A stretch of DNA of 64,000 nt from Pseudomonas sp. 10S4 (lineage in GTDB: Bacteria > Pseudomonadota > Gammaproteobacteria > Pseudomonadales > Pseudomonadaceae). Numbering within the stretch: position 1 is the first letter of the stretch; every line of letters starts with the position of its first letter. Of the stretch, positions 1,039 through 15,804 are shown in pieces. The notes under the pieces are model-generated. The model saw only the letters and a program-made list of their open reading frames with translations. It had not been told where the DNA came from and did not search any database. A program made the translations under genes and the position numbers. The stretch lies in assembly GCF_034344865.1 (NCBI RefSeq), contig NZ_CP133774.1, positions 4,650,001-4,714,000 on the forward strand. Reading direction: 5' to 3'.

Positions 1039-1911
1039 ATGCACCTACGCAAAATTGCAGTTGGGCTCTCGGCCCTTGTTTTGCTCTCGACCGGGGCGCA
1101 AGCCCGCAGTCTGCTGGATCTCCTCAAGCCGCCCACCGAGCATCAGGAACAAACGCATCGCTCTGGCTCGATCAGCCAGAACGCGGCCCTGGACCTCTAT
1201 TCAAGCAAACAGCAACAGGCATCGTTTGACGGTTGCGCCGATCTGTTCCCGGCTGCGAAGCCGATCAACCTGGCCACTGTGCCGGCAACCATGAAACCCC
1301 TGGCGTTGTGTTCCGACAACTTCGCGGTGCTGTACTCGCAAACCAGCAAGACGCCGATAGTCGTGGTCGAACGCCTTAATTCGGCTCAGTTGCAGGACGC
1401 CAAAGGGGAGGAGCGCACCAACCAGTTCTACCCGGACCCACGCATCCCCAAGGGTGCTCGGGCCGAGTTGAGCGATTACCGCAGCCAGCATCCGGCCGTG
1501 GACCGTGGCCACCAATCCCCGGCCGCCGATGCACCGAGCCCCAATGCCATGGCGCAGTCCTTTGCGCTGTCGAACATGGTGCCGCAAGACCCTACCAACA
1601 ACCGGAAGATCTGGAGCAAGGTCGAGGCTGACGTCAGGAAGTTTGCCAAGCGCGCCGATGGCAATGTGTTTGTCTTTACCGGCCCGCTCTTTGATGAAGG
1701 CCACGCCACCATCGGCGACAACAAGGTCTGGGTGCCGACTCGCCTGTTCAAGCTGGTTTACGATGTATCCTCCAAGCGCGCCTGGGCCTACGTACTACCC
1801 AACGCTGAGACCCGTATCGAGAAGCCGATGGACTACGATACTTTCGTGAAAAGTACCGGGCTCAAGTTGTTGGGCAATCTACCGGTTACCGGTTCCGTAG
1901 GGCGCACTTGA
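1039..1911 (+). CDS. Secreted DNA/RNA non-specific endonuclease (Serratia nuclease/NucA family)
   Basis: The 290-residue protein begins with a Sec signal peptide (cleavage expected after about QA, residue 22). The central region carries the family active-site motif DRGH at residues 155-158, followed by SFALSNMVPQ and the Asn pair at about 187-188. In this family the motif His is the general base and the Asn binds the catalytic Mg2+. It should cleave single- and double-stranded DNA and RNA in the periplasm or outside the cell, for example in nutrient scavenging or removal of extracellular DNA. No immunity gene is visible next to it. It ends just inside the left 104-bp repeat and is followed by a terminator, convergent in design with the NCS1 permease gene now 13.8 kb away. 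Confidence 0.85.
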   Translation: MHLRKIAVGLSALVLLSTGAQARSLLDLLKPPTEHQEQTHRSGSISQNAALDLYSSKQQQASFDGCADLFPAAKPINLATVPATMKPLALCSDNFAVLYSQTSKTPIVVVERLNSAQLQDAKGEERTNQFYPDPRIPKGARAELSDYRSQHPAVDRGHQSPAADAPSPNAMAQSFALSNMVPQDPTNNRKIWSKVEADVRKFAKRADGNVFVFTGPLFDEGHATIGDNKVWVPTRLFKLVYDVSSKRAWAYVLPNAETRIEKPMDYDTFVKSTGLKLLGNLPVTGSVGRT

Positions 1912-2012
1912 TGGCTTGACGAACCGCTCCCGGCCTACCTGAAAAGAACAGAAAAAACCCGCAACCGAGTGCGGGTTTTTTTGCTTGAATGGTGCGCGTT
2001 ATCCCTGACACA
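1909..2012. repeat. Left copy of 104-bp direct repeat bracketing the T1SS block
   Basis: The 104 bases from 1909 match 15701-15804 in the same orientation, with six mismatches by eye (about 94 percent). The sequence spans the last bases of the endonuclease gene, a rho-independent terminator, and a sequence equal to the last codons of the NCS1 permease read on the minus strand. In this copy the permease stop TAA is changed (TTA to TGA on the plus strand), so this is the displaced copy of the permease 3' end. The two copies suggest that the endonuclease and permease genes were once convergent neighbours and that the block between was inserted with duplication of the junction. Confidence 0.8.
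1951..1983. terminator. Rho-independent terminator after endonuclease gene
   Basis: An A-rich run precedes the perfect 7-bp stem acccgca/tgcgggt with a 6-base loop, then a T-tract of 7. The A- and T-tracts make it bidirectional, as expected for a terminator between convergent genes. Confidence 0.85.
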
Positions 2013-2673: not shown

Positions 2674-4851
2674 ATGACTGACCCTAACGCAAGGACCCGC
2701 GTTTCGCCCGAAACGCCACAACACAATGGAAGTGAAGACAGTGGTATTGCATCACTCGTCGTCATTGCCCAGTTGTCCGGCGTCGCCATCAGCGCCGACC
2801 GCCTCAAACACCTGTCAGGGCTGTCCCGGCCTATCGATGCCTTGACGTTGGTGCGTCTGGCCCGGCAGGTCGCGCTCAAGGCCCGCTCTACCACCAGCCA
2901 GATCAGCCGCATTGCGCAGACGCCGCTTCCCGCTATCGCCGAACTTCGGGACGGACGCTTTCTGGTCGTGGCCAAGTGTGCGAACGACAACGTCTTGCTG
3001 CACGATGAAGTGCAACAGCGCACCTTTCAACTCACCTTGGCCGAGTTTGAACAAATCTGGTCCGGTCGTTTAATCCTGATTACTTCCCGCGCCATCCTGG
3101 CACAAGGCGGCGGCAAGTTTGATATGTCGTGGTTCATTCCGTCGATTGTCAAATATCGCAAACAATTTCTGGAAGTGTTGGCTGGCTCGTTTTTCCTGCA
3201 ACTATTCGGTTTGGTTTCGCCGTTATTTATGCAGGTCGTGATTGATAAAGTGCTGGTGCACAAATCAATGTCGACTCTGGATGTATTGGCGTTCGGCCTG
3301 ATTACCATCTCCGTGTTCGAAGCATTACTGGGTGGATTGCGCACTTACGTGTTCAGCCATACCACCAACCGGGTCGATGTCGAACTGGGTGCGCGCCTGT
3401 TCAATCACTTGCTGGGGCTGCCGCTGGCGTATTTCCAGGCGCGGCGAGTGGGCGACAGTGTGGCGCGGGTGCGCGAGCTGGAAAATATCCGCAACTTCCT
3501 CACCGGTAACGCGTTGACCGTGGCCATGGATATGTTTTTCACCCTGGTGTTCTTCGCGGTGATGTTGACCTATTCGCCCATGCTGACCTTGATCGTGTTT
3601 ATCTCGTTGCCGTGCTACATCGCCTTGTCGGTCATCGTGACGCCAGTGCTCAAGGCCCGACTCGATGAAAAATTTCGCCGTAGCTCGGAAAACCAATCGT
3701 TCCTGGTGGAGTCGGTGACCGGCATCGAAACCATCAAGTCGATGGCCGTCGAACCCTTGATGCAGCGTCGCTGGGAAGAACAGCTGGCCGGCTACGTGTC
3801 CAGCGCCTTCAAGGCTTCCAGCCTTTCCAGTTCGGCCAATCAAGTGGCGTCCCTGATCAGTAAGCTCACCACCGCGGCCTTGTTGTGGTTTGGCGCCAGG
3901 CTGGTCATCGGTGGCGACCTTTCGGTGGGCGAACTGATTGCCTTCAATATGCTCTCCGGTCGGGTCAGCGGCCCGGTCTTGCGTCTGGCGCAACTGTGGC
4001 AAGACTTTCAGCAAGTGCGGCTGTCGATGGACCGCTTGGGCGACATCCTCGACAACCGCGCGGAATCCGGCGTCTCTGCCGGGCAAGCTTCAATGCCGCC
4101 GGTCAAGGGTGAAGTGGTGTTCGATCGGGTGGTGTTTCGCTACCGCGCCGACGGTCCGGAGATTCTGCGCGGTTTGTCATTGACCGCCGCAGCCGGCGCC
4201 GTCATCGGCATCGTCGGCCCCTCCGGTTCTGGCAAAAGTACCCTGACCAAATTGATCCAGCGCCTCTATTCACCCGAGCGCGGACGGGTACTGATCGACG
4301 GCATGGATTTGTCGGTGCTCGATCCCGCGTCACTGCGGCGGCAGATCGGAGTGGTCCTGCAAGAGAACATGCTGTTCAAAGGCACGGTGCGCGACAACAT
4401 CGCCTTCGCTTCGCCGGGCATGCACTTTGATCAGGTGGTCGAAGCCGCAGAACTGGCCGGTGCCCACGAGTTCATCCTGGAACTGCCGCAAGGTTACGAC
4501 ACCGAACTGGGGGAGCGCGGCAATGGTTTGTCCGGTGGTCAGCGCCAACGCATCGCCATCGCGCGGGCACTGGTGACCAATCCGAAAATCCTGATCTTTG
4601 ACGAAGCCACTTCCGCACTGGACGCAGAATCGGAATCGATCATTCACGGCAACATGCACAAGATCTGTAAGGATCGTACGGTGTTCATCATCGCTCACCG
4701 GTTGTCGGCGGTCAGAATTGCCCAACGGATCATCACGGTCGAGAAAGGCCTCATCGTCGAAGAAGGCAGCCACGACGAGCTGCTGCAACAAGACGGTCGT
4801 TACGCCTCGCTGTGGCGTCATCAGACAGGGCACCTGCATGTCGCTGCTTAA
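2674..4851 (+). CDS. Type I secretion ABC exporter (HlyB/LapB type, peptidase-dead C39-like domain)
   Basis: The 725-residue inner-membrane ATPase energises export of a T1SS substrate from cytoplasm to outside. Domain order: C39-like domain (1-140), membrane domain (about 160-430), nucleotide-binding domain (about 480-720). Walker A GPSGSGKST (about 514), signature LSGGQRQR (about 619), Walker B ILIFDEATSALD (about 639) and the H-loop AHRLS (about 675) are intact. In the N-terminal domain the peptidase motif DCGxAC is replaced by DSGIAS, so it should bind but not cleave substrate, as in HlyB- and LapB-type exporters. It overlaps the adaptor gene by 14 bases and heads the T1SS block. The Shine-Dalgarno sequence is weak. 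Confidence 0.93.
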   Translation: MTDPNARTRVSPETPQHNGSEDSGIASLVVIAQLSGVAISADRLKHLSGLSRPIDALTLVRLARQVALKARSTTSQISRIAQTPLPAIAELRDGRFLVVAKCANDNVLLHDEVQQRTFQLTLAEFEQIWSGRLILITSRAILAQGGGKFDMSWFIPSIVKYRKQFLEVLAGSFFLQLFGLVSPLFMQVVIDKVLVHKSMSTLDVLAFGLITISVFEALLGGLRTYVFSHTTNRVDVELGARLFNHLLGLPLAYFQARRVGDSVARVRELENIRNFLTGNALTVAMDMFFTLVFFAVMLTYSPMLTLIVFISLPCYIALSVIVTPVLKARLDEKFRRSSENQSFLVESVTGIETIKSMAVEPLMQRRWEEQLAGYVSSAFKASSLSSSANQVASLISKLTTAALLWFGARLVIGGDLSVGELIAFNMLSGRVSGPVLRLAQLWQDFQQVRLSMDRLGDILDNRAESGVSAGQASMPPVKGEVVFDRVVFRYRADGPEILRGLSLTAAAGAVIGIVGPSGSGKSTLTKLIQRLYSPERGRVLIDGMDLSVLDPASLRRQIGVVLQENMLFKGTVRDNIAFASPGMHFDQVVEAAELAGAHEFILELPQGYDTELGERGNGLSGGQRQRIAIARALVTNPKILIFDEATSALDAESESIIHGNMHKICKDRTVFIIAHRLSAVRIAQRIITVEKGLIVEEGSHDELLQQDGRYASLWRHQTGHLHVAA

Positions 4852-6202
4852 TCGATGGTTCCCACGGCTGCAGCATTACCGCGACATTGCCCGCGCGGCA
4901 CTCGATGCTGAAAAAGCCCAAGGCAATCCCCTGCAACGCCAGCGTGACGAAGTCGAGTTTTTGCCGGCGGCGCTGGAGGTACTGGAAACGCCCGTGTCCC
5001 CGGTCGGTCGCGGCTTGATGTGGGCGCTGATGCTGTTGTTCGCCATTGCCCTGGTCTGGTCGACTGTCGGCAAACTCGACGTGGTTGCGGTGGCGGAGGG
5101 CAAGGTCGTCCCCAACGGCAAAAGCAAAACGATCCAACCGCTGGAAGCCGGCATCGTCAAGGCGATCCTGGTCGACAACGGCCAGCACGTGACCCAAGGC
5201 CAGGCCCTGATCGAACTGGACCCGACCGAGGCCACGGCGGATGTCGGTAAATCGAGGACGGCGCGGGTCGATGCAATGTTGACGATCAACCGCGCCCAAG
5301 CCCTGCTCGATGCGCAAACCGTCAATCGGACACCGACCGTCCAACCGGTGCCGGACGCTACCGAGGATCGACAACGAGATACCCAACGCTTCGCCGAAGG
5401 CGCCTTCTACGAACACCGCAGCAAACTCACCAGCTTGCGCTCGGAGTTGCAAAAACGCGTGCAGGAACTGCAAACCACCCAGCACAAAATCAGCAGCCTG
5501 CAGCAGACCTTGCCGATGACCCGCGCGGAAGAGGAGGACTACCAGACCTTGCTCCAGCAAAGCTACGTACCGCGCCATGCCTACCTGGAAAAGGTGCAAG
5601 CGCGCATCCAGCAGGAACAGGAGCTGGCCGGGCAACAGAGTTACGCCAAAGAACTGCAAGCCACGATCCAGGAACAACGCGACGACATCGACACCGCCAT
5701 CGCGCAATTTCGCCGCGAACAACTCGACGCCCTCAATCAGGCGCAACAGCAACTGACCCAGGACCAGGGCGACGAAACCAAGTCCCGACAACGGCAATCG
5801 CAAACCCATTTGACTGCACCGGTGGGCGGCACCGTGCAGGAACTGGCCGTGCATACGATTGGCGGCGTCGTCACCCCGGCGCAAGCCCTGCTGGTGATTG
5901 TGCCGGACGACGCCGGACTGGAAGTTGAAGCGCAGATTCTCAACCGCGATATCGGCTTTGTCCGCCCGGGGCAGGACGCCGAAATCAAGCTGGATGCCTT
6001 TCCGTATACGCACTACGGGACTATTGCCGGCAAGGTCATGTCGATTTCCCAGGACGCGGTCAAGGACGACAAGTTGGGGCTGATTTATCCGGCAAGGATA
6101 CAACTCAGTACGCATGTAGTTATGGCGGATGGAAAAAATTCAACTGGAGCCGGGGATGTCGAGTTCGGTGGAGATCAAGACCGAGCAGCGGCGGATTATT
6201 GA
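4838..6202 (+). CDS. T1SS periplasmic adaptor (HlyD family), 3' end frameshifted
   Basis: This membrane-fusion protein should link the ABC exporter to the TolC-type outer-membrane protein. After a cytoplasmic N-terminus comes one membrane segment (about 58-78), a biotinyl-lipoyl half (GKVVPNGKSKTIQPLEAG), a long Gln/Glu-rich coiled coil (about 180-320), the second lipoyl half (LTAPVGGTVQELAV) and a beta-barrel region ending near QLSTHVVMADG. The start ATG at 4838 lies inside the exporter gene. At the A6 run 6133-6138 the frame slips: as written, the protein ends after a non-family tail (454 residues). With one A fewer it continues through KIQLEPGMSSSVEI and stops at 6257 (472 residues), the normal HlyD C-terminus. 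Confidence 0.9.
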   Translation: MSLLNRWFPRLQHYRDIARAALDAEKAQGNPLQRQRDEVEFLPAALEVLETPVSPVGRGLMWALMLLFAIALVWSTVGKLDVVAVAEGKVVPNGKSKTIQPLEAGIVKAILVDNGQHVTQGQALIELDPTEATADVGKSRTARVDAMLTINRAQALLDAQTVNRTPTVQPVPDATEDRQRDTQRFAEGAFYEHRSKLTSLRSELQKRVQELQTTQHKISSLQQTLPMTRAEEEDYQTLLQQSYVPRHAYLEKVQARIQQEQELAGQQSYAKELQATIQEQRDDIDTAIAQFRREQLDALNQAQQQLTQDQGDETKSRQRQSQTHLTAPVGGTVQELAVHTIGGVVTPAQALLVIVPDDAGLEVEAQILNRDIGFVRPGQDAEIKLDAFPYTHYGTIAGKVMSISQDAVKDDKLGLIYPARIQLSTHVVMADGKNSTGAGDVEFGGDQDRAAADY

Positions 6203-6257
6203 GTATCTGTTGACACCATTGTTGAAGTATCAGAGTGAGGCGTTGAGGGAACGGTGA
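6133..6257 (+). other. Frameshifted C-terminal coding segment of the HlyD adaptor
   Basis: Reading this stretch one base out of phase with the preceding adaptor frame gives QLEPGMSSSVEIKTEQRR and then the usual HlyD ending (YLLTPLLKYQSEALRER) with a TGA at 6255-6257. The slip coincides with a run of six A; five A would restore the family-typical C-terminus. A sequencing error or a real lesion are both possible. Confidence 0.75.
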
Positions 6258-6291
6258 AATATATGACCAGGTTGGGGATGAGGGGAGCTTT

Positions 6292-6903
6292 ATGACGGCT
6301 AAAGAGAAGATGTCCTGGTTCACCGCGTTTTATCAGATGTGGGGCGGGAAAGCCGTTGGGCTTGGGAAAAATCATCGAGCGAAATCGGTATGGATGATAG
6401 CAGCGGTAATTTTATCCATTTTGGGTCCCCTATTTCAGATTATGCATAGCCAAAACTACTCAGGTGCCTTGCCGCCTGAGGCGCCTATGATAAAAACGAC
6501 AGGCACATTCATTCGTTATATTGGGCATGCGGGTCTGAAAGAAGTGCCCTATATCGTGTTTACTACCGACAGTGGTATCACTTACCGCACTGAAGATATC
6601 GTCGCTCCTGGGGTGCTGTCCGACTTGGGCGATAAAAAGCCGCCCGTAAAAGTGTATGCCGAAGGCTTTCTTCTTAATAATGGGGCAGGCTCATTTTACC
6701 CGCTCTATTTGGCTAATCTGAATGGAGTACCTTTAGCCTCGTCAGATAAGTTGATGGCTCAGCTTTTGATCGGTAGAGATCCATTTTATTATAAAAAAAT
6801 GGAGTTTATTTTGTTGATGGTTGTTATTTCTTGGGCAGGGGCGGCCTATTATGCTTGTCAACTGAGGAATCTGGGTTTGGAGAAAAATAGAAGGGGTGTT
6901 TGA
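6292..6903 (+). CDS. Two-pass membrane protein of unknown function within the T1SS block
   Basis: The 203-residue product has hydrophobic segments at about 32-52 and 170-188, leaving a loop of about 115 residues between them, probably periplasmic, with short cytoplasmic ends. The loop (KEVPYIVFTTDSGITYRTEDIV) looks like a small beta domain but I do not recognise it. A good ribosome binding site (gaggggag) precedes the ATG. It lies 34 bases after the restored adaptor stop and 155 bases before the giant repeat protein, on the same strand, so it is probably co-transcribed with the secretion genes and may help assembly or retention of the substrate. The local base composition is AT-richer than flanking housekeeping genes, consistent with transfer. 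Confidence 0.7.
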   Translation: MTAKEKMSWFTAFYQMWGGKAVGLGKNHRAKSVWMIAAVILSILGPLFQIMHSQNYSGALPPEAPMIKTTGTFIRYIGHAGLKEVPYIVFTTDSGITYRTEDIVAPGVLSDLGDKKPPVKVYAEGFLLNNGAGSFYPLYLANLNGVPLASSDKLMAQLLIGRDPFYYKKMEFILLMVVISWAGAAYYACQLRNLGLEKNRRGV

Positions 6904-7058
6904 GATTGATTTTTGCACAATTTCGTTGCAGGTCGTTTTTTGTTTGGCTGCACAGGGTGGGTGATTGATAGCGCATCAAGCGCGCGTAGCATGGGTTTAT
7001 AAAATGGGTGTTATATATTTTTCACGCCACTTAAGTAGTGTGCGTGCAGGGGGTTATC

Positions 7059-10000
7059 ATGTCTGAAATAACAACGCTCGATGCTCTTGCTAAACTCATC
7101 GGTGGTCAAATGATTGGCGGAGCCGCATCAAGTGCGGACGCCGCCAATGAAATAATAGCCACAACGGATACTAAGGAAACCGACTTTGGAAAAATCGCCG
7201 ATAGCATAGTTGCAAGTTCTGATTTGGCGGGTATCGCTGCCGGTAATATTCAAATGTTTCAGCAGTTTTTGTCTGCGTCGAGTGAAGCGGGAGCTTTGGC
7301 TGCGGGACTTGCGACCAGGGCTGGAGCTATTGGAGTGGTCGCGAACATCCTGGCAATGGGTGACACTGCCCTGGAGCGAGGGTATGACAAAATCAAAACG
7401 GGTACCATTGTCAGTACCGTTGGAGGTGTATTGCTGACTGCTGGAACGGTGGCTCTTGCACCAGAGGCAGTCATAGCATTGGGCATTTTGGGTGCAGGCC
7501 TGACTATTGCCGGACTGACTAACCTGGGTACGGTTGGTAGTAACGAGGCTTGGCTCGCAAGTGCGTACAGTTCCATGGCTGACACGATAAAGCCTTACTA
7601 CGACAGTCTTTCGATAGACGAACAGACCTCCTTCCAGAGTGCGCTGACAAATGCCGTTCAAAGCACTTTAAATGGCGGCATGTTGGTCCCGACAATCGAT
7701 TCGGACGGTCAAATTGACGGGTATTCAATGCAAGCCCCGACTTCTGTCGTCCAACAGGATAATGGCAGTACGGTCAGCTACTTTGACGGTGGCATAGGGG
7801 TTGTATCTCCTGCCCCCGGCGATACCTCGTCAGGTTTAGTTTGGACTATTCCTCAGCCAGGCTCTGAAAACTCAGTAGAGATTTCAACGTACAAGGATGG
7901 AAGTTATACGTACAACAGCGTTGACCAAAGTCAAACAAAGATCAGCATTGACAGCAATACTGCAAACACAGCTACAGCGTCTGCTCAAAACGAGGAAATG
8001 ATTCAGACGTCGTCAAACGGTAGTGTTAGCGCGACCTTGGGTGGCACAGGCGCTACCGCGAACTTAAACAACGCTAACGAGGTGTTGATTGATGGTGCTA
8101 GTGCGACAATAACGGGTTCCAACAACAACGTTAATGCCGGTGCAGATAGCCAAACCACCATCAATGGCTCCAGCAATAACATCACAGGCGATACTGGCGC
8201 CACAGTAGATCTGGCAAACGGATCGGACTGGGATGTCGTGACGATGATGAAAAATGGCGAAGTCATCATCGCTGACGCAGATACCGGAATAACCATCAAC
8301 GCCAGCGACAGTACTGTGGCCATTGGCACCTATGCCAGCGTTTCAATCAACGGCAGCACTGACGTAGTTACTGGAGGCAATGGTGACAACGTCACCACCC
8401 AGGGAACTGGACAGAACATCACACTGGGTACTGGAAGTACATTGGTCATGACTGGCACCGATGAAGAAGCCAGCCTGTCCAACGGTACCGTTTGGTTGGG
8501 AGCGAACACAACACTGACCGGTAGTGGTTTAACCGGTTCCAACGATGTTTTAAACGTCAGCCAGAACGACTCCGTCGTCGAGAACGGCAAGGACGACACC
8601 GTTAACCTGAGTTCAGGTGACAGCCTGGTCAGCAATGGCGGGGGGAATAACATCATCAATGCTGGCGTAGATGACACTGTGGTCATCGACAGTATCACCG
8701 CGGGGTATACCGATACGGTGAACGCCACCGGTGATCAAAGCATCACCTTGGGCAACGACGTATCGGTCGATGTCGTGGGCAGTGGCAATACGATTTTCGT
8801 GGCAGGCACCGGCGACGTGTTGACGGACTCGGGCGACACGATTGCAAGCAGCAATGCCTCCCTGACGATAATGAACACCTCGGGGACTGCGGATCTTATC
8901 AGCGGCAGCAACGACACGATTACGGCCAACCACAGTTCGATTTCGTTCAGTGGGATGGACGAGGTTTTGTCTGGAGTCTATGACACGGTAGGGCTGGAAA
9001 CGGGTAGTTCGCTGACGCTATCGCTCTATGACGACACCCTCAACCTGAGTTCAGGTGCCAGCGTGGTCATTAGTGGAGGCGTTGGCAGCGGAAACGTCAT
9101 CAATGCTGGCGTTGATGACATCGTGGATATCGACAGTATGACTGCCGGGTATACCGATACGGTGAACGCCACAGGTGATCAGAGCATCACGTTGGGCAAC
9201 GACGTGTCGGTTGATGTGGTGGGCGGTGGCAATACGATTTTCGTGGCAGGCACTGGCGATGTCTTGGCGGATTCGGGTGACACGATTGCAAGCAGCAATG
9301 TCTCCTTAACGATTATGAACACCTCGGGGGCTGCTGACCTTATCAGCGGCGACGGCGATACGATTACGGCCAACCACAGTTCGATTTCGTTCGGTGGGGT
9401 GGGTGAGGTTTTGTCCGGGGTCTATGACACGGTTGGGCTGGAAACGGGTAGTTCGCTGACGCTTTCGCTCTATGACGACACCCTCAACCTGAGTTCAGGT
9501 GCCAGCGTGTTCATTAGTGGCGGCGTTGGCAGCGGCAACATCATCAATGCTGGTGTTGATGACATCGTCGATATCGACAGTATGACTGCCGGGTATACCG
9601 ATACCGTGAACGCCACGGGTGATCAAAGCATCACGTTGGGCAGCGACGTATCAGTCGATGTTGTGGGCAGTGGCAATACGATCACCGCCAATGGCGGCGA
9701 TAGCGTGTCAGCCAATGGCGATACGATCCTGATCGCAGGAATCGGCAATTCGCTTGCGGGGGCGGGCGACACGATTTCAAGCAGCAATATCTCCTTAACG
9801 ATTATGAACACCTCGGGGGCTGCCGATCTTATCAGCGGCGACGGTGACACGATTACAGCCAGCCACAGTTCGATAATGCTCAGTGGAGTGGGCGAGGTGA
9901 TGTCCGGAAGCTATGACACGATCGTGGTGAACACGGGTAGTTCGGTGACGCTGACTAACTATGACGACACCATCAACCTCAGTTCAGGCGCCAGCCTGGT

Positions 10001-10079
10001 CACCAGTGGAGGGGGGCAACATTATCAATGCCGGTGTGGATTCCACCGTGTATATCGGCAGTACCACAATCGGTGCTGA
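7059..10079 (+). CDS. Giant T1SS-exported beta-repeat protein, N-terminal fragment
   Basis: This is the first of three frames that together would make one protein of about 1971 residues (7059-12974). The ATG at 7059 follows the ribosome binding site aggggg; an upstream GTG frame lacks one. The N-terminus MSEITTLDALAKLIGG resembles a double-glycine leader. Residues about 60-165 are an Ala/Gly-rich hydrophobic region. Next come low-complexity Ser/Thr/Asn/Gly beta-strand repeats, then long near-identical units containing GDQSITLG, SVDVVGSGNTI, MNTSG, YDTVGL and YDDTLNLSSGA. The frame is lost at the G6 run 10011-10016: one G too many gives a 20-residue nonsense tail. Classical RTX nonapeptides are essentially absent. 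It is probably a surface or extracellular adhesin-like stalk. Confidence 0.85.
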   Translation: MSEITTLDALAKLIGGQMIGGAASSADAANEIIATTDTKETDFGKIADSIVASSDLAGIAAGNIQMFQQFLSASSEAGALAAGLATRAGAIGVVANILAMGDTALERGYDKIKTGTIVSTVGGVLLTAGTVALAPEAVIALGILGAGLTIAGLTNLGTVGSNEAWLASAYSSMADTIKPYYDSLSIDEQTSFQSALTNAVQSTLNGGMLVPTIDSDGQIDGYSMQAPTSVVQQDNGSTVSYFDGGIGVVSPAPGDTSSGLVWTIPQPGSENSVEISTYKDGSYTYNSVDQSQTKISIDSNTANTATASAQNEEMIQTSSNGSVSATLGGTGATANLNNANEVLIDGASATITGSNNNVNAGADSQTTINGSSNNITGDTGATVDLANGSDWDVVTMMKNGEVIIADADTGITINASDSTVAIGTYASVSINGSTDVVTGGNGDNVTTQGTGQNITLGTGSTLVMTGTDEEASLSNGTVWLGANTTLTGSGLTGSNDVLNVSQNDSVVENGKDDTVNLSSGDSLVSNGGGNNIINAGVDDTVVIDSITAGYTDTVNATGDQSITLGNDVSVDVVGSGNTIFVAGTGDVLTDSGDTIASSNASLTIMNTSGTADLISGSNDTITANHSSISFSGMDEVLSGVYDTVGLETGSSLTLSLYDDTLNLSSGASVVISGGVGSGNVINAGVDDIVDIDSMTAGYTDTVNATGDQSITLGNDVSVDVVGGGNTIFVAGTGDVLADSGDTIASSNVSLTIMNTSGAADLISGDGDTITANHSSISFGGVGEVLSGVYDTVGLETGSSLTLSLYDDTLNLSSGASVFISGGVGSGNIINAGVDDIVDIDSMTAGYTDTVNATGDQSITLGSDVSVDVVGSGNTITANGGDSVSANGDTILIAGIGNSLAGAGDTISSSNISLTIMNTSGAADLISGDGDTITASHSSIMLSGVGEVMSGSYDTIVVNTGSSVTLTNYDDTINLSSGASLVTSGGGQHYQCRCGFHRVYRQYHNRC

Positions 10080-11620
10080 CGATACAGTGAACGCCACCGG
10101 TGATCAGAGCATCACCTTAGGCAGCGATGTATCAGTCGATGTGGTGGGCAGTGGCAATACGATTTTGGTTGCAGGCACCGGCGATGTGTTGTCGGGTTCG
10201 GGTGACACGATTTCAAGCAGTAATGTCTCGCTGACTATTTTGAATACCTCGGGTACTGCCGATCTTATCAGCGGTAACAACGACACCATTACGGCCAACC
10301 ACAGTTCGATTTCGTTCAGTGGGATGGATGAGGTTTTGTCCGGAAACTACGACACGGTTGGGCTGGGCACGGGTAGTTCTGTGACGCTGACCAGCTATGA
10401 CGAAACCCTCAATGTGAATTCGGGGGCCAGCGTCGTCATTAGCGGAGGAGGTAATAACATCATCAATGCTGGCGTTGATGACACCGTGGTCATCGACAGT
10501 ATGTTTGCGGGATATATTGATACGGTGAACGCCACAGATGATCAGGGCATCATCTTGGGCAGCGACGTATCGGTCGATGTGGTGGGCGCTGGCAATACGA
10601 TCACCGTCAATGGCGGCGATAGCGTGTCAGCGAATGGCGATACGATCCAGATTGCGGGAATCGACAATTCGCTTTCGGGTTCGGGCGATACGATTTCAAG
10701 CAGCAATGGCTCCTTGACGATTATGAACACCTCGGGGGCTGCCGATCTTATCAGCGGTAATAGCGACACGATTACAGCCAACCACAGTTCTATTATGTTC
10801 GGTGGGGTGGGCGAGGTGTTGTCTGGAAACTACGACACGGTTGGGCTGGGCACGAGTAGTTCTGTGACGCTGACCAGCTATGACGATTCCATCAACCTGA
10901 GTTCAGGTGCCGGTGTGGTCATCAGTGGAGGGGGAAACAACATCATCAATGCTGGCATTGATGACAGTGTTGTCATCAACAGTAGCTCTGACGGGTATGC
11001 CAATACAGTGAACGCCACGGGTGATCAGAACATCACTTTGGGCAGTGATGTATCGGTCAATGTGGTAGGCAGTGGTAATACGATTTTGGTGACAGGTACT
11101 GGCGATGTGTTGACGGACTCGGGAGACACGGTTTCAAGTAGCAATATCTCCCTGACGATTATGAACACCTCGGGTACTGCCGATTTTATCAGCGGCAACA
11201 ACGACACGATTACAACCAACCGCAGTTCGATTATGTTCGGTGGGGTGGGCGAGGTGATGTCCGGAAACTACGACACGGTTGGGCTGGCCACGGGTAGTTC
11301 CGTGACACTGGCCAACTATGACGACACCGTCAACATGAGTTCAGGTGCCAGTGTGATCATTAGTGGAGGGGGAATAACATCATCAACGCTGGCGTTGATG
11401 ACACCGTGGTCATCGACAATAGCTCCAGCGGGTACACCGAAACGGTGAACGCCACGGGTGATCAGGGCATCACCTTGGGCAGCGACGTATCGGTCAATGT
11501 GGTGGGCAGTGGCAATACGGTCGCCGCCAATGGTGGGGACAGCCTGTCAGCGAATGGCGATACGATCCTGATCGCAGGAATCAACAATTCGCTGACGGGT
11601 TCAGGTAATACGATTACCAG
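8610..11620 (+). repeat. Seven tandem DNA-level repeats of about 438-483 bp inside the giant gene
   Basis: Using gtgatcag/gtgatcaa of the GDQ codons as anchor, copies begin near 8731, 9175, 9619, 10100, 10538, 11021 and 11458, giving spacings of 444, 444, 481, 438, 483 and 437. The longer spacings contain an additional 39 bases encoding a NGGDSVSANGDT segment. Units are nearly identical over long stretches at DNA level, so copy number probably changes by recombination, and short-read assembly would be unreliable here. Confidence 0.85.
9961..11448 (+). CDS. Giant T1SS-exported beta-repeat protein, middle fragment (frame 2)
   Basis: From about 10017 this frame continues the repeat protein directly: NIINAGVDSTVYIG follows SGGG of the first fragment. 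Codons before about 10010 are out of phase and not genuine. It holds repeat units 4 to 6, alternating between short and long forms; the long form carries an extra segment NGGDSVSANGDTI. The frame is lost again at the G5 run 11368-11372, where one G is missing relative to the equivalent GGGNN codons of other units, and the protein continues in the original frame. The two slips are opposite in sign and therefore compensate overall. There is no separate start signal, so as it stands this part would not be translated. Confidence 0.7.
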   Translation: MTTPSTSVQAPAWSPVEGGNIINAGVDSTVYIGSTTIGADDTVNATGDQSITLGSDVSVDVVGSGNTILVAGTGDVLSGSGDTISSSNVSLTILNTSGTADLISGNNDTITANHSSISFSGMDEVLSGNYDTVGLGTGSSVTLTSYDETLNVNSGASVVISGGGNNIINAGVDDTVVIDSMFAGYIDTVNATDDQGIILGSDVSVDVVGAGNTITVNGGDSVSANGDTIQIAGIDNSLSGSGDTISSSNGSLTIMNTSGAADLISGNSDTITANHSSIMFGGVGEVLSGNYDTVGLGTSSSVTLTSYDDSINLSSGAGVVISGGGNNIINAGIDDSVVINSSSDGYANTVNATGDQNITLGSDVSVNVVGSGNTILVTGTGDVLTDSGDTVSSSNISLTIMNTSGTADFISGNNDTITTNRSSIMFGGVGEVMSGNYDTVGLATGSSVTLANYDDTVNMSSGASVIISGGGITSSTLALMTPWSSTIAPAGTPKR

Positions 11621-12974
11621 CAGCAATATTTCCCTGGCAATTGTAAATGCGTCGGCAGTCGCAAATACAATCACTGGTGATCACGATGTCATTGCTGTCA
11701 GCCATAGTGTGCTCAATCTGAATGGGTCGAATGAGGTCGTGTCCGGTAACGATGATGTGATCACAGTTGCACACGGTGAAAGCGTCATCATCAGTGGTGC
11801 AGGCAACACCGTCACAGGGTCTTCTGACCGCATCACGTTATCTGGTGATAACAGCTCGCTGACTATCCAGGGGAACGGCGACAACCTGACGGCGTCGGGT
11901 GTCAATGACCGGATCATTGACAATCGTGCCGATGGCTCGTCGGTTCTCTACGGTTGGAACAGCAGTGGGACCGAAACGGAAACCGTTTATTCCGAGGCCA
12001 ACGACGGTGGTCAAATAATCGGTGGATATGGGTATTCGGGGCCGGGTATAGGTGTTGACGTCCCGGTTGGATATGGCGGCGATGACGGTGGTGATGGTGG
12101 TGATGGCGGTGGCTATGGCTTTGCGGGTGATCGATCTCTAGTGTCGTCTGCTGTTGGCAAGAACATCGGCGCCATCGCGCAATACGATCTCAATCACGCA
12201 AACCTGTCTGCCGCGGATGCTGCTGAGGTTGCGCAGCATCAGGTCCAGGCCATAGCGAGCCAGGCATCCACAACCGGAGCAGGTTCCGCAGTGCTTGAAG
12301 GCGCCAAATTCGACCAGCAGGTCATTACCTGGAGTCTTGCGGACACTCAGGGAACCCAGGCCGCGCAATTCAGTGGCTATATGGGGAGTGCCGACGAGTC
12401 GGTCGTTCAGGGCGCTTTTAACACCTGGGCTGCCGCCATGCCGGGCGTGACGTTCAAAGAGGTGGCCGACTCCGCGCAGTCTGACATCCGGCTGGGCTTT
12501 GGCGATTTCAACACCGCGACTACCGGGGTTATCGGCTACACCAGCTATCAGGCCAATGACGGTCAGATTGAGCCCGATGCCATCGTGCGCGTGGAGGATT
12601 CTGCCCAGGATGCGCTGACAACAGGCGCCGACGGGCAACAGATCTTCGCCGGCACCGACGCCACCCTGTCGCAAGTGTTGCTGCATGAAATTGGCCACGC
12701 GCTGGGCCTGGGAGACAACGCCGATCAAAACTCGGTGATGAACTACCAGCTCACCACCAGTAACCGGGCGCTGGACCGTACGGACCTCGGCGGTATCGGT
12801 TCGCTTTATGGTGCTGGCGCGAGTACCGCGCCAGTGGGCGGCAGTGGTGTGAGCCAGTTGATTCAGGCCATGTCTACCTTCAATGCGGATGCCGGTGTCG
12901 CCGATACCGCCTTGCTGCCGGCCTCGTTATCAACGAGCAGCATCACCTTGGCCGCCACCTCGCGCGCGGCCTGA
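11406..12974 (+). CDS. Giant T1SS-exported protein, C-terminal fragment with metzincin-like protease domain
   Basis: This frame carries the last repeat unit, a Gly/Asp linker (GGDDGGDGGDGGG near 12080), and a domain of about 230 residues resembling serralysin/matrixin metallopeptidases. The zinc motif HEIGHALGLGD (codons 12684-12716) has two His plus a third ligand that would be Asp, not the usual His. The catalytic Glu is present and the Met-turn is SVMNY. The last about 50 residues (SQLIQAMSTF to LAATSRAA) are uncharged and small-residue rich, as in C-terminal T1SS signals. Having the protease after the repeats is the reverse of serralysins, where the protease precedes the RTX repeats. The start at 11406 is only the first GTG in the frame; true coding resumes about 11373. 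Confidence 0.8.
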   Translation: MVIDNSSSGYTETVNATGDQGITLGSDVSVNVVGSGNTVAANGGDSLSANGDTILIAGINNSLTGSGNTITSSNISLAIVNASAVANTITGDHDVIAVSHSVLNLNGSNEVVSGNDDVITVAHGESVIISGAGNTVTGSSDRITLSGDNSSLTIQGNGDNLTASGVNDRIIDNRADGSSVLYGWNSSGTETETVYSEANDGGQIIGGYGYSGPGIGVDVPVGYGGDDGGDGGDGGGYGFAGDRSLVSSAVGKNIGAIAQYDLNHANLSAADAAEVAQHQVQAIASQASTTGAGSAVLEGAKFDQQVITWSLADTQGTQAAQFSGYMGSADESVVQGAFNTWAAAMPGVTFKEVADSAQSDIRLGFGDFNTATTGVIGYTSYQANDGQIEPDAIVRVEDSAQDALTTGADGQQIFAGTDATLSQVLLHEIGHALGLGDNADQNSVMNYQLTTSNRALDRTDLGGIGSLYGAGASTAPVGGSGVSQLIQAMSTFNADAGVADTALLPASLSTSSITLAATSRAA

Positions 12975-12994
12975 CAGGCAGTTTTCAAAGCGTA

Positions 12995-13042
12995 AAAGCT
13001 GTCACGACATCCGCGTGGTTTGCAGCGGATGTCGTGCTCCAG
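12995..13042 (+). promoter_or_regulatory. Long hairpin between giant protein gene and sulfotransferase gene
   Basis: Arms cacgacatccgc (13001-13012) and gcggatgtcgtg (13023-13034) are a perfect 12-bp inverted repeat with a 10-base loop, extended by outer arms agctg/cagct (12995-12999, 13038-13042). No T-tract follows. It could stabilise the upstream mRNA or damp read-through into the sulfotransferase gene, lowering its level relative to the substrate. Confidence 0.6.
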
Positions 13043-13103
13043 CTATGGCGCAACGACGCCTGTCCACAACACGTTGACCGTTCTGATCGAACAGGGAACA
13101 ACT

Positions 13104-13931
13104 TTGAAAACCAGATTTCATTTGATTTCCGGCCTGCCACGCTCAGGCTCGACCCTTCTCTCGGGCCTCTTGCGCCAGAACCCGCGTTTTGCGGCCACGA
13201 TGACCAGTCCCGTGGCTGCACTTGTCGGCACCGTGCACCCGAAGATGTGCGGCGGCGAGTTCGGCGGGTTCTTTGACGACACCAAACGGGCAGCCATTCT
13301 GCGGGCGGTGTTCGAGTCTTATTACGCCGACACACTCGCGACGATGCCCGGCGACGCGGTGGTGTTCGATACCAATCGCACATGGACCGGGCGCGCTGCG
13401 TTGTTGGGATCGATTTATCCTGAATCGCGGATTATCTGTTGCGTACGCGATGTCGGCTGGATCATCGACAGCATTGAAAGCATGCTCGCGAAAAACCCTT
13501 TACAACTTTCACGCATGTTCAATTTTCAACCCGGTGCTTCGCTTTATGCGCGAGTTGAAACGCTGATGAATTCAGATAGTGGCCTGATTGGTTTGTCCTG
13601 GAGCAACCTGCGCGAAGCCTGGTTTGGCGCAGAAGCAAAACGTCTGATCGTGGTGCCTTACGACCATTTGGTGAAAGAACCCGCGCGTACCTTGCAGCGG
13701 CTGTATACGGAGTTGGGTGAAGCTTATTTCGAGCACGATTTTCATAATGTTGCGTATGACGAGCCGGACTACGACGCCCACATCGGCATGCCAGGTCTGC
13801 ACAGCGTCCGAAACAAGGTCGAATACCGTGAGCGTAAGCCGTGTATTCCACCGGATGTCTTTGCCAAATATGCGAGTACCCACTTTTGGGATAAGGCCGA
13901 ACTCAATGTTCGAGGTGTGACCATTGTTTAA
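13104..13931 (+). CDS. PAPS-dependent sulfotransferase in the T1SS block
   Basis: The 275-residue protein starts FHLISGLPRSGSTLL, where PRSGST (residues 12-17) is the 5'-phosphosulfate-binding loop of sulfotransferases. A second motif CVRDVGWIIDSIES (Arg about 114, Ser about 122) fits the 3'-phosphate-binding Arg and Ser. It should transfer sulfate from PAPS to a hydroxyl in the cytoplasm. I prefer the TTG start at 13104 because aggg lies upstream and the P-loop then begins near residue 10. The open frame extends to 13020, with an ATG at 13029 inside the hairpin. Its position between the exported repeat protein and the TolC-type gene recalls RaxST in the Xanthomonas rax locus, which sulfates a tyrosine of a T1SS substrate. 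The substrate here is inferred. Confidence 0.85.
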   Translation: MKTRFHLISGLPRSGSTLLSGLLRQNPRFAATMTSPVAALVGTVHPKMCGGEFGGFFDDTKRAAILRAVFESYYADTLATMPGDAVVFDTNRTWTGRAALLGSIYPESRIICCVRDVGWIIDSIESMLAKNPLQLSRMFNFQPGASLYARVETLMNSDSGLIGLSWSNLREAWFGAEAKRLIVVPYDHLVKEPARTLQRLYTELGEAYFEHDFHNVAYDEPDYDAHIGMPGLHSVRNKVEYRERKPCIPPDVFAKYASTHFWDKAELNVRGVTIV

Positions 13932-14000
13932 ACCGAGGTTGTCGAGGCGATCTGATCAATCACGCGGTGAGTTCCAGGTCAAAAGGATGAGTGGTCAGGC

Positions 14001-15473
14001 ATGGTGAGTTTTAGTCGAGCGGCCCTGCGTACTGGCGTCGCGTGTGTTCTTTTTTGTGTGGGTACGGGCCAAAGTTTTGCTTTCGAATTAGCGCCAACTG
14101 ATCCGTTGCGGCAATTAAAGGGTGTATCTGCCACGCCGGCCAATCACATGTTCGATCCGTCGTCCGCATTGGACGTGTGTGCGGGCGATGCAAAGACCGA
14201 TCTGACGTTACTCGATATCGTCTCCAGCGCGTTGTGCCACAACCCGAAAACCCGTGACGCCTGGGCCAATGTCAAAGTGCAAGCTGCGCAGGTCGGTGTA
14301 TCCGAGGCCGCCTATCTGCCGACGTTGAATGGCACGATGCAGGCAGCGAAAGATAATTCGAACAGTCGCGGAACCGCCGCCGATCCGTTCGACGTTCAAT
14401 CCAGCAGCCGCTACCAGAGCGCCGGATTGACACTGACGTGGCTGCTCTATGATTTCGGCGCCCGATCGGCAGGCGTCGATTACGCCAAGAGCAAGCTCGC
14501 ATCCGCTCTGGCGGGACAAGACAGCGCATTGCAGACGGTGTTTGCCAATACGGTCAAGGACTACTACGCCGCCTTCGTCGCGCAAAAAAACATGCAGGCG
14601 ACGCGAGACATTGAAGCAGATGCAAAGCGTGTATTGGACGCGGCAACGGTACGAGTACAGCACGGCGTGGCGGCCGTCAGCGATCAGTTGCAAGCGCAAA
14701 CGTCGTATTTCCAGGCGACCTTCAATCGCCACAAGGCCGAGGGCGATTGGTTGTCTTCGCTTGGCTTGATGGCGATCGACATGGGACGACGTCCCAATCA
14801 ACCCTTGCATCTGGTCGACGCGGACAACGTCACTTTGCCCACCAAGTCCTTTGGGCGGTCTGTCGATCAATTGCTGCAAACCGCCCAGGAGCGACACCCT
14901 TCATTAATCGCTGCCCGAGCTGATCTGGCGGCGGCGCAAGCCAACGAAGAAGTCGTCCGGGCGCAGGGCCGACCGACGATCAGCTTTGTCGGTAAATACA
15001 ACTACGATAATCAACCCCAGAGCTCAGGCGCCGGTCAGCAATATTTTGGTGAGACCGTTCGGGACCGCTCGGTCGGGCTACAAGTCAACATCCCGCTTTT
15101 TGAGGGGTTTACCCGAACCTATCAAGTGCGCGGCGCGCAGGCTCAGGTCGAAGGCAAGGAAGCCAGCTTGAGCGATGCTGAACTGCAAGTAGCGTCCAGT
15201 GTCTGGACCGATTACCAGACATTGACGGTAGACACGGAAAACGTGCACACCAGCCAGCAAATTCTCGACAGTGCCCATCAGGCATTCGATGCCGCGCAAG
15301 CGCGCTATGGGAAGGGCGTGACCGGTATCCTTGAGGTCATCACGACCCAGACGGCATTGGCCAACGCGCTGCAACAGCAGATCAGCGCGCTGGCTGGCTG
15401 GCAGAACGCACGGATTCAATTGGCGTCGAGTTTGGGGAGCCTGGATTTGAAGAGTCTTTACTCGACGCCTTGA
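14001..15473 (+). CDS. TolC-family outer-membrane channel of the T1SS
   Basis: The 490-residue protein has a signal peptide (cleavage expected after QSFA, about residue 28) and two long alpha-helical halves typical of the TolC/OEP fold, for example AQARYGKGVTGILEVITTQT near the C-terminus, where R-Y-x-x-G is a family hallmark. It should form the trimeric outer-membrane exit duct contacted by the HlyD-type adaptor. It is the last gene of the block, 69 bases after the sulfotransferase gene. An aagga sequence lies about 12 bases before the ATG. With exporter, adaptor and channel all in one block, the secretion apparatus is complete apart from the frame problem in the adaptor. Confidence 0.92.
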   Translation: MVSFSRAALRTGVACVLFCVGTGQSFAFELAPTDPLRQLKGVSATPANHMFDPSSALDVCAGDAKTDLTLLDIVSSALCHNPKTRDAWANVKVQAAQVGVSEAAYLPTLNGTMQAAKDNSNSRGTAADPFDVQSSSRYQSAGLTLTWLLYDFGARSAGVDYAKSKLASALAGQDSALQTVFANTVKDYYAAFVAQKNMQATRDIEADAKRVLDAATVRVQHGVAAVSDQLQAQTSYFQATFNRHKAEGDWLSSLGLMAIDMGRRPNQPLHLVDADNVTLPTKSFGRSVDQLLQTAQERHPSLIAARADLAAAQANEEVVRAQGRPTISFVGKYNYDNQPQSSGAGQQYFGETVRDRSVGLQVNIPLFEGFTRTYQVRGAQAQVEGKEASLSDAELQVASSVWTDYQTLTVDTENVHTSQQILDSAHQAFDAAQARYGKGVTGILEVITTQTALANALQQQISALAGWQNARIQLASSLGSLDLKSLYSTP

Positions 15474-15700
15474 AGTCCGCTCGGCGTATCCGTACCGTTT
15501 TGGTTGGTTTTGTTCCACGACTGACCAGTCTCCGGTCATTGGTGATTACCTGATGTACCCACTTGGTAGCCACCAATAGTAGGTGCGCTGCTCGACAAGC
15601 GAATGGAGAGGCGAGCATTTGAGAAGGCACAGTCGGTTGAGCGCCCTCTACAAGGGGCAATACGTTTAGCTTCAGCAACTCATCGCGAATATCCAAAATT
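15474..15700. other. Non-coding right end of the T1SS block
   Basis: No gene, integrase or insertion-sequence end is recognisable. A 104-codon minus-strand frame (15382-15696) covers it but overlaps the TolC gene and has no family resemblance, so it is not called. No tRNA gene is visible at either border of the block. Confidence 0.4.
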
Positions 15701-15804
15701 TGATGGCTTGATGAAATGCTCCCGGCCTACCTGAAAAGAACAGAAAAAACCCGCAACCGAGTACGGGTTTTTTTGCTTGAACGGTGCGCGTTATCCCTTA
15801 CACA
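15701..15804. repeat. Right copy of 104-bp direct repeat bracketing the T1SS block
   Basis: Matches 1909-2012 with six mismatches. Here the sequence is in its native context for the permease: it contains the true TAA stop of the NCS1 permease (tta 15798-15800). The left part repeats the tail of the endonuclease gene (tgatggcttga) although no endonuclease gene is present here. Confidence 0.8.
15743..15774. terminator. Rho-independent terminator, second copy
   Basis: Same hairpin as at 1951-1983, but the right arm reads tacgggt, introducing one mismatch in the 7-bp stem. It serves the NCS1 permease gene on the minus strand and any transcript leaving the TolC gene on the plus strand. Confidence 0.75.

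What the first reader, a model, noticed from the sequence alone, without database searches (positions are those of the whole stretch)
2674..15473. Candidate sulfation-linked type I secretion system with a giant repeat protease
One strand carries ABC exporter, HlyD adaptor, an unknown two-pass membrane protein, a giant beta-repeat protein ending in a metallopeptidase-like domain, a PAPS-type sulfotransferase and a TolC-type channel. Exporter, adaptor, channel and sulfotransferase together recall the Xanthomonas rax locus (RaxABC, RaxST), where RaxST sulfates a tyrosine of the exported peptide RaxX. Here the presumed cargo is a protein of about 1970 residues with repeats, so it would be a distinct, larger version: an exported surface or extracellular protease or adhesin that may be sulfated before export. 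That all parts act on the same cargo is inference from gene order.
Basis: partly seen in the sequence, partly recalled or inferred. Interest (0 to 1): 0.85.

Follow-up and report, generated by a model that had tools for sequence, protein, structure and literature searches.

The report
Sulfotransferase-linked type I polymorphic toxin system
A bacterial export cluster found, with its parts in different orders, in distantly related bacteria appears to ship a large protein with a swappable front end and a matching immunity gene, and carries its own tyrosine-sulfating-type enzyme, which would be a new use of a chemical mark rarely seen in bacteria.

Summary
The cluster at 2674-15473 is real: HlyB-type exporter, HlyD, two-pass membrane protein, giant beta-repeat protein with a C-terminal matrixin-like (M10) domain, PAPS-type sulfotransferase (ST), TolC. 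In this assembly HlyD and the giant gene change frame; Pseudomonas relatives have single ORFs. The unit is conserved: of 22 ST loci found by a two-pattern scan of 84,980 species genomes, 17 adjoin an M10 cargo (one cut by a contig end) and 19 carry T1SS genes, in three proteobacterial classes and Nitrospirae MAGs, with changed gene order. The ST model is closest to tyrosylprotein sulfotransferases. Cargos beside an ST have a Gly/Tyr/Asp tract ending Y-x-[FLVA]-[AST] (22 of 23 rows); ST-less ones mostly do not (1 of 6) and are more acidic there. This test is post hoc and not significant on independent pairs. Cargo N-termini are polymorphic over a constant C-terminal half, the gene 5' of the cargo matches the N-terminal type (2 of 2 pairs), and a genome without M10 hits keeps three such genes in tandem. 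Best reading: a T1SS-exported polymorphic toxin with immunity gene, tyrosine-sulfated before export. Sulfation, toxicity and immunity are inferred.

The parts
1908..2012 (.). left copy of a 105-bp direct repeat (94% identical to the right copy), with a terminator-like stem, downstream of the endonuclease gene
2674..4851 (+). HlyB-type T1SS permease/ATPase with a C39-like domain (EDSGIASL, Ser where the Cys is expected)
   Evidence: the Cys motif is recalled
4838..6202 (+). HlyD periplasmic adaptor, 5' part in frame; C-terminus out of frame in this assembly
6132..6254 (+). conserved HlyD C-terminus (41 aa, 95% identical to L036) in another frame
6292..6903 (+). two-pass membrane protein; predicted immunity protein for the N-terminal module of the cargo
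   Evidence: function inferred
7059..8060 (+). variable N-terminal module of the giant cargo, with two adjacent hydrophobic segments (residues 115-152); boundaries approximate
8060..11900 (+). beta-repeat region, read in three frames (changes near 10012-10016 and 11370-11373); boundaries approximate
12006..12128 (+). Gly/Tyr/Asp-rich tract ending GGGYGFAG; candidate tyrosine-sulfation tract
   Evidence: modification inferred
12120..12860 (+). matrixin-like M10 domain; HEIGHALGLGD at 12684-12716
12840..12974 (+). conserved C-terminal tail (VSQLIQAMSTF...), presumed uncleaved T1SS signal
   Evidence: function inferred
13104..13931 (+). TPST-like PAPS sulfotransferase (Arg13, Ser123 and Glu52 invariant in the alignment)
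14001..15473 (+). TolC-type outer membrane channel
15699..15803 (.). right copy of the 105-bp direct repeat

Best explanation
A type I secretion system exports a polymorphic, probably antibacterial, toxin. The cargo has an exchangeable N-terminal payload module and a constant C-terminal half (beta-repeats, a probably flexible Gly/Tyr/Asp tract, a matrixin-like domain with an altered zinc site, and a C-terminal export tail). The gene just 5' of the cargo (here the two-pass membrane protein 6292-6903) is the cognate immunity protein. The neighbouring TPST-like sulfotransferase uses cytoplasmic PAPS to O-sulfate tyrosines of the tract before HlyB/HlyD/TolC export; the sulfates add negative charge that ST-less relatives obtain from Asp/Glu. 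Shown: gene set, conservation, polymorphism, pairing of the 5' gene with the N-terminal type in the few loci compared, enzyme fold family. Inferred: toxicity, immunity, sulfation and its site, charge role, export of this cargo by this T1SS.
Against: One ST-less locus (L188) has a Tyr-rich tract with the motif. The motif was defined after seeing the data; on independent pairs it is not significant (4 pairs, sign p 0.125-0.5). Two ST-less cargos sit in genomes that hold an ST elsewhere (L086, L165). 5 of 22 ST loci show no adjacent M10 cargo. [quoted passage not shown] There are no toxicity, immunity or sulfation data. The window's own HlyD and cargo genes are broken. Glu52 is only a candidate catalytic base; the TPST Glu (recalled) is not at the aligned place.
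Confidence: 0.55

Rival explanations
1. Same exported cargo, but the ST modifies something else (a small molecule, a surface glycan or another protein) and travels with the T1SS for regulatory or historical reasons.
For: PF13469 enzymes act on many substrates (recalled); 5 of 22 ST loci show no adjacent M10 cargo; 41-48% paralogues, common in the genus, lie outside such units in the 17 neighbourhoods read; 4 genomes have the M10 T1SS without a close ST.
Confidence: 0.25
2. An exported surface adhesin or extracellular protease, sulfated or not, whose fast-changing N-termini bind hosts or substrates rather than being toxin modules.
For: Beta-repeats and an M10 domain fit a surface protein; LysM (P0037) and an FGE-sulfatase-like neighbour (L059) are not toxins by themselves.
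Against: Separate N-types with matching 5' genes, an M23 peptidase module (P0073), LprI lysozyme-inhibitor genes and an array of the 5' genes in a genome without M10 hits. The third zinc ligand of matrixins is His in only 4 of 138, which weakens a plain protease role.
Confidence: 0.2
3. In this strain the locus is a decaying cluster that does nothing (compatible with the best explanation for the system elsewhere).
For: Three frame changes in HlyD and cargo; the same-species genome G216 has neither membrane-protein nor M10 match; a relative holds only remnants of exporter genes (L038).
Against: The three changes lie at runs of one base, where sequencing errors also fall; exporter, ST and TolC are open; several relatives are intact.
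Confidence: 0.3

Closest known systems
Xanthomonas raxX-raxSTAB (RaxST, RaxX)
   Same: TPST-like cytoplasmic sulfotransferase beside T1SS genes; PAPS-binding Arg and Ser in both (RaxST Arg-11/Ser-118 in PMC6637879; here Arg13/Ser123)
   Different: RaxX is a 60-residue precursor with a double-glycine leader removed by RaxB, and TolC and PAPS genes are elsewhere (PMC6637879, abstract and passages); here a cargo of about 2000 aa, an HlyB-type exporter without the C39 Cys, its own TolC, a polymorphic N-terminus and a candidate immunity gene
Polymorphic toxin systems (CDI, Rhs, LXG and others)
   Same: constant delivery part, variable payload, adjacent immunity-like gene, arrays of spare such genes (general features recalled; the listing of PMC9484751 mentions strings of immunity genes)
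   Different: payload is N-terminal and delivery is type I; in the held part of the 2012 survey (PMC3482391) the terms 'type I secretion', 'T1SS', 'matrixin' and 'sulfotransferase' do not occur
Caulobacter Cdz system (PMC5380434, passages)
   Same: T1SS exporting glycine-zipper toxins, with a three-pass inner-membrane immunity protein
   Different: Cdz toxins are a two-protein bacteriocin said to be likely unmodified; no M10 domain or sulfotransferase mentioned in the passages seen
Animal tyrosylprotein sulfotransferases TPST1/2
   Same: fold and PAPS motifs; some of their substrates carry sulfotyrosine in acidic tracts (PMC9372746, passages)
   Different: 13-17% identity; no membrane anchor seen; catalytic Glu not at the aligned place (recalled residue)
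Matrixins / karilysin (M10A)
   Same: Pfam M10 match, HExxHxxG, Met-turn; nearest PDB matches MMP-16 and karilysin
   Different: third ligand position is Asp in 108 of 138 and His in 4 of 138

Membership tests
Rax-type sulfated-peptide T1SS | sulfotransferase with PAPS-binding Arg and Ser motifs | tested here: met
   Arg13 and Ser123 invariant in 32 of 32 rows; RaxST residues from PMC6637879 section 12
Rax-type sulfated-peptide T1SS | peptidase-type exporter and double-glycine leader | tested here: not met
   exporter is TIGR01846 HlyB-type with Ser at the C39 Cys position (motif recalled)
Rax-type sulfated-peptide T1SS | RaxX-like precursor of about 60 residues | tested here: not met
   cargo of about 1970 codons; single ORFs of 1808, 1949 and 1954 aa in L036, L084 and L085
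Rax-type sulfated-peptide T1SS | direct orthology to RaxST | not tested
   no RaxST sequence was retrieved
Tyrosylprotein sulfotransferase | PAPS sulfotransferase fold closest to TPST | tested here: met
Tyrosylprotein sulfotransferase | catalytic base between the PAPS motifs | tested here: inconclusive
   Glu52 invariant in 32 of 32 but not aligned to the TPST Glu (residue recalled)
Tyrosylprotein sulfotransferase | sulfates protein tyrosine | not testable with these tools
   needs an enzyme assay or mass spectrometry
Type I secretion system | ABC exporter, adaptor and outer membrane channel in one cluster | tested here: met
   HlyD broken in this assembly
RTX T1SS substrates | RTX nonapeptide repeats (PF00353) | tested here: not met
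   no match in any of the three pieces; 4 of 139 family proteins carry PF00353
Matrixin (M10A) | HExxHxxGxxH zinc site | tested here: not met
   HEIGHALGLGD here; His in 4 of 138
Polymorphic toxin system | variable payload on a constant delivery part | tested here: met
   (N-terminal rather than C-terminal)
Polymorphic toxin system | adjacent gene that goes with the payload type; orphan arrays | tested here: met
   2 of 2 testable pairs; extra copies in L036 and L038; seven loci compared
Polymorphic toxin system | toxicity and neutralisation | not testable with these tools
   needs expression tests

The most novel reading that the evidence does not exclude
Bacteria use a dedicated tyrosylprotein sulfotransferase to sulfate a Gly/Tyr tract in large type I-secreted polymorphic toxins, and sulfotyrosine charge stands in for the Asp/Glu of sulfotransferase-less relatives (mean Tyr plus acidic residues in the 30-residue tract 9.4 with ST, 9.8 without), giving an exported acidic segment that does the work of RTX repeats.
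Probability: 0.25. Interest if true: 0.92.

Novelty: new variant of a known kind. Interest (0 to 1): 0.8.

Why it matters
In the passages I saw, RaxX is the only bacterial protein named as tyrosine-sulfated. [quoted passage not shown] This locus supplies a defined candidate substrate family, a candidate site, natural ST-less controls (one in the same genome) and another possible role, bacterial antagonism rather than hormone mimicry. It also suggests that type I secretion carries a modular toxin class with N-terminal payloads.

Tried and rejected
Rejected: (a) a simple larger Rax system (exporter type, cargo and own TolC differ); (b) ST linkage unique to this strain; (c) the 41-48% ST paralogues as members of the same system: none of the 17 paralogue neighbourhoods read (L039-L055) holds the M10 cargo or a full T1SS set; 6 of 17 show weak or partial ABC or TolC similarity, up to 182 bits; (d) RTX repeats; (e) a plain matrixin zinc site.

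Led nowhere: broad M10 searches gave few true members, centres included: 2 of 349 in the order of G399, 1 of 337 in the class of G412, 6 of 127 in the genus of G405, 3 of 140 in its family, 1 of 11 in the genus of G1302 (in 44 and 45 a further 25 and 23 genomes have weaker matches of at most 75 bits; seven of those places were read and show no such unit). Rfam and tRNA scans of the window were empty. The cargo C-terminus model was poor (pLDDT 48.5) and was not searched. Six relatives share the right flank but not the endonuclease on the left, so no empty site was shown. A lytic-transglycosylase-like N-terminus of P0035 was seen by eye only and got no Pfam or PDB match.

Rows dropped before the count: L063 (same tract and M10 sequence as L062), L056, L058 and L075 (same contigs as L085, L037 and L036), L064 (cargo cut by the contig end); L164 was listed but left out of both groups (ST on another contig of its genome). 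16 further ST+ rows rest only on equal contig lengths and are counted separately. My notes say 137 family proteins; the ids P0009-P0147 are 139.
Full report
OBSERVATION. The window lies in a one-contig 7.27-Mb genome (G000). I take it as a Pseudomonas: contigs of named P. gingeri genomes have the same lengths as contigs of handles called 'same genus'. Searches confirm exporter, adaptor, membrane protein, repeat protein with M10 domain, sulfotransferase (ST) and TolC in the stated order. HlyD and the giant gene change frame at runs of A or G. Relatives have single-ORF cargos of 1808 (L036), 1949 (L084), 1954 (L085) and 1770 aa (L086). L037 has 3648 aa in one ORF, but its first 100 or so residues appear to lie in another frame (109-aa ORF at 3020-3346; by eye). 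A database protein, P0047 (2140 aa), matches the window at 99.6-100% downstream of 10012 but at only 79% upstream of it.

CONSERVATION. A scan of genomes of 84,980 species, using two peptide patterns from three close STs, gave 22 loci; it is a sample near the query, not a census (a protein search counts 4328 ST relatives, 120 of them listed). Of the 22, 17 adjoin an M10 cargo (16 fully visible; L064 is cut by the contig end) and 19 have exporter, adaptor or channel genes in the stretch (L070 and L073 only by weak matches, 51 and 49 bits; L077, with ABC similarity of up to 261 bits but only ST fragments, is not counted). Organisms with cargo: Pseudomonas, Caballeronia, Paraburkholderia, Pelomonas, Nitrospirillum, Methylocapsa, and MAGs of Burkholderiales, Methylococcaceae, Alphaproteobacteria and Nitrospirae. 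Order: ABC-HlyD-(5' gene)-cargo-ST-TolC in Pseudomonas; cargo-ST-ABC-HlyD-TolC in Paraburkholderia and others. In L072 the ST follows ABC-HlyD and is followed by a PF01507 protein, read as CysD, and CysN-CysC, which would make PAPS; an M10 cargo lies on another contig of that genome. On a Nostoc plasmid a related ST lies between a calcium-binding protein and cysC. Exceptions: L068, L071 and L077 show no such unit; L074 has ST and T1SS but no M10 cargo.

RARITY. M10 C-terminus in 5 of 398 genus genomes, the window's included; membrane protein in 3 of 249. ST matches occur in 68 of 249 genus genomes, but all except three of the matches listed are 41-48% paralogues; none of the 17 paralogue neighbourhoods read shows the system.

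CANDIDATE SITE. Before the M10 domain lies a Gly/Asp/Tyr tract; in the database family Tyr makes up 11% of the tract against 4% of the preceding 300 residues (125 and 111 rows). With ST adjacent, 22 of 23 rows (20 loci) have Y-x-[FLVA]-[AST] at the domain start. Without ST it is 1 of 6: L086 (the window's own genome), L165, L179, L185 and L186 lack it; L188 has it. Fisher p = 2.9e-4; adding 16 rows linked to an ST by equal contig length gives 36 of 39 and p = 2.6e-4. Tyr in 30 residues: 4.4 vs 1.3; Asp+Glu: 5.0 vs 8.5; Tyr% of the M10 body 2.5 vs 2.4 (control). The motif was chosen after looking and the rows are related. On the tree (ST-less rows scattered, 5 changes, not more clustered than shuffles; the window's sister is the ST-less L086, support 91/85) only 4 well-supported independent pairs exist: same direction in 3.4 of 4 on average, never opposite, sign p 0.125-0.5. 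No ST match in G1112, G1148 and G1302, only a remote one (108 bits) in G1188; the genomes of L086 and L165 hold an ST elsewhere.

PAYLOAD AND IMMUNITY. The C-terminal 284 residues are 98.6-99.6% identical among three P. gingeri proteins (L036, P0033, P0035); their first 400 residues show no match for L036 with either of the others, and a partial one (53% over 164 aa) between P0033 and P0035. The window and P0047 share 99.3% of the C-terminus and no N-terminal match; P0047 comes from an assembly of repeats and could be chimeric. The window's N-terminus has short partial matches to L036, L086, P0033 and P0035 (36-52% over 67-140 aa). N-terminal modules include hydrophobic segments (window, L084, L085), an M23 peptidase (P0073, 72.7 bits), LysM (P0037, 45.2 bits) and a lipase-3 match below its cut-off (P0025). 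The gene just 5' of the cargo goes with the N-type: L084 and L085 (N-termini 33% alike) share one membrane-protein family (30%), L036 and L086 (48%) another family (50%); directly 5' genes of different types do not match each other. L036 also keeps, further upstream, a homologue of the window's membrane protein (47%) and an LprI-type lysozyme-inhibitor gene homologous to one in L037 (60%). L038, from genome G141 (no M10 hit), has only fragments of exporter genes but three full-length tandem genes homologous to the L084-, L085- and window-type 5' genes (60, 65 and 56%). This is the pattern expected of orphan immunity genes, and it makes the 'unknown two-pass membrane protein' a probable immunity protein. 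Seven loci were compared, so the pairing rests on few cases.

M10 DOMAIN. The family matches MMP-16 and karilysin, but the third zinc-ligand position is Asp in 108, Ser in 17 and His in 4 of 138, so activity is uncertain. The poor cargo model (pLDDT 48.5) shows short regular strands in the repeats and very low confidence over the tract; that is compatible with a flexible segment and no more.

MOBILITY. A 105-bp direct repeat (94%) brackets the cluster at 1908-2012 and 15699-15803. Six relatives share the right flank but not the left gene. This fits insertion but does not prove it.

LITERATURE. Searches (full text of open papers; some lists capped, in 118 at 15 of 451) listed no paper whose title or abstract start describes a sulfotransferase with M10 T1SS cargos. 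PMC6637879: abstract, sections 8 and 12 and passages. PMC9372746, PMC5380434 and PMC3482391: passages only. All other papers: search listings only. The sulfated RaxX stretch I had in mind is recalled and was not confirmed.

VERDICT. A real, conserved ST-cargo-T1SS unit (confidence about 0.95). ST acts on the cargo (about 0.65). The site is the Tyr tract (about 0.5). Polymorphic toxin with immunity gene (about 0.75). All chemistry and biology remain untested.

Noticed in passing
window 1908-2012 and 15699-15803: 105-bp direct repeat, 94% identical, with a terminator-like stem, on both sides of the cluster: possible insertion footprint.
   Followed up: partly
L086 (G000:C1:5722000-5741999): Second, ST-less M10 T1SS system in the same genome with a 1770-aa single-ORF cargo and a different N-terminal module.
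   Followed up: yes
L038:10551-13120 (G141): Tandem array of three putative immunity genes beside fragments of exporter genes.
   Followed up: yes
L037:3020-3346: A 109-aa ORF resembling the N-terminus of P0047 lies in another frame just before the 3648-aa cargo ORF: this P. gingeri cargo may be frame-broken too.
   Followed up: no
L070:6114-8396: Directly after the ST, a protein with an aspartyl/asparaginyl beta-hydroxylase domain and PQQ-type propeller repeats: perhaps a second modifying enzyme for the Asp-rich tract.
   Followed up: no
L065:2931-4757: Two STs in tandem, the second diverged, beside a cargo whose linker is Pro/Ile-rich yet keeps GYGFAG.
   Followed up: no
L060 and L061: Two tandem M10 cargos beside one ST in Nitrospirillum.
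   Followed up: no
L059:851-1813: FGE-sulfatase-like gene (PF03781, 176.6 bits) 5' of the cargo; similar pieces are seen by eye in L076.
   Followed up: partly
L039-L055: 41-48% ST paralogues common in the genus, not in an M10 T1SS unit in the 17 neighbourhoods read; substrate unknown.
   Followed up: partly
L181 (Nostoc plasmid): ST between a calcium-binding protein and cysC: maybe a cyanobacterial sulfated exported protein.
   Followed up: no
P0091, P0093, P0094, P0097: RTX-bearing members (PF00353) have few Tyr and acidic residues in the tract (1, 1, 1 and 3 Tyr; 3 acidic each, of 30), as if RTX repeats and the tract were alternatives (n = 4).
   Followed up: partly
window 1039-1911: DNA/RNA non-specific endonuclease (PF01223, 154.6 bits) left of the cluster.
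   Followed up: no
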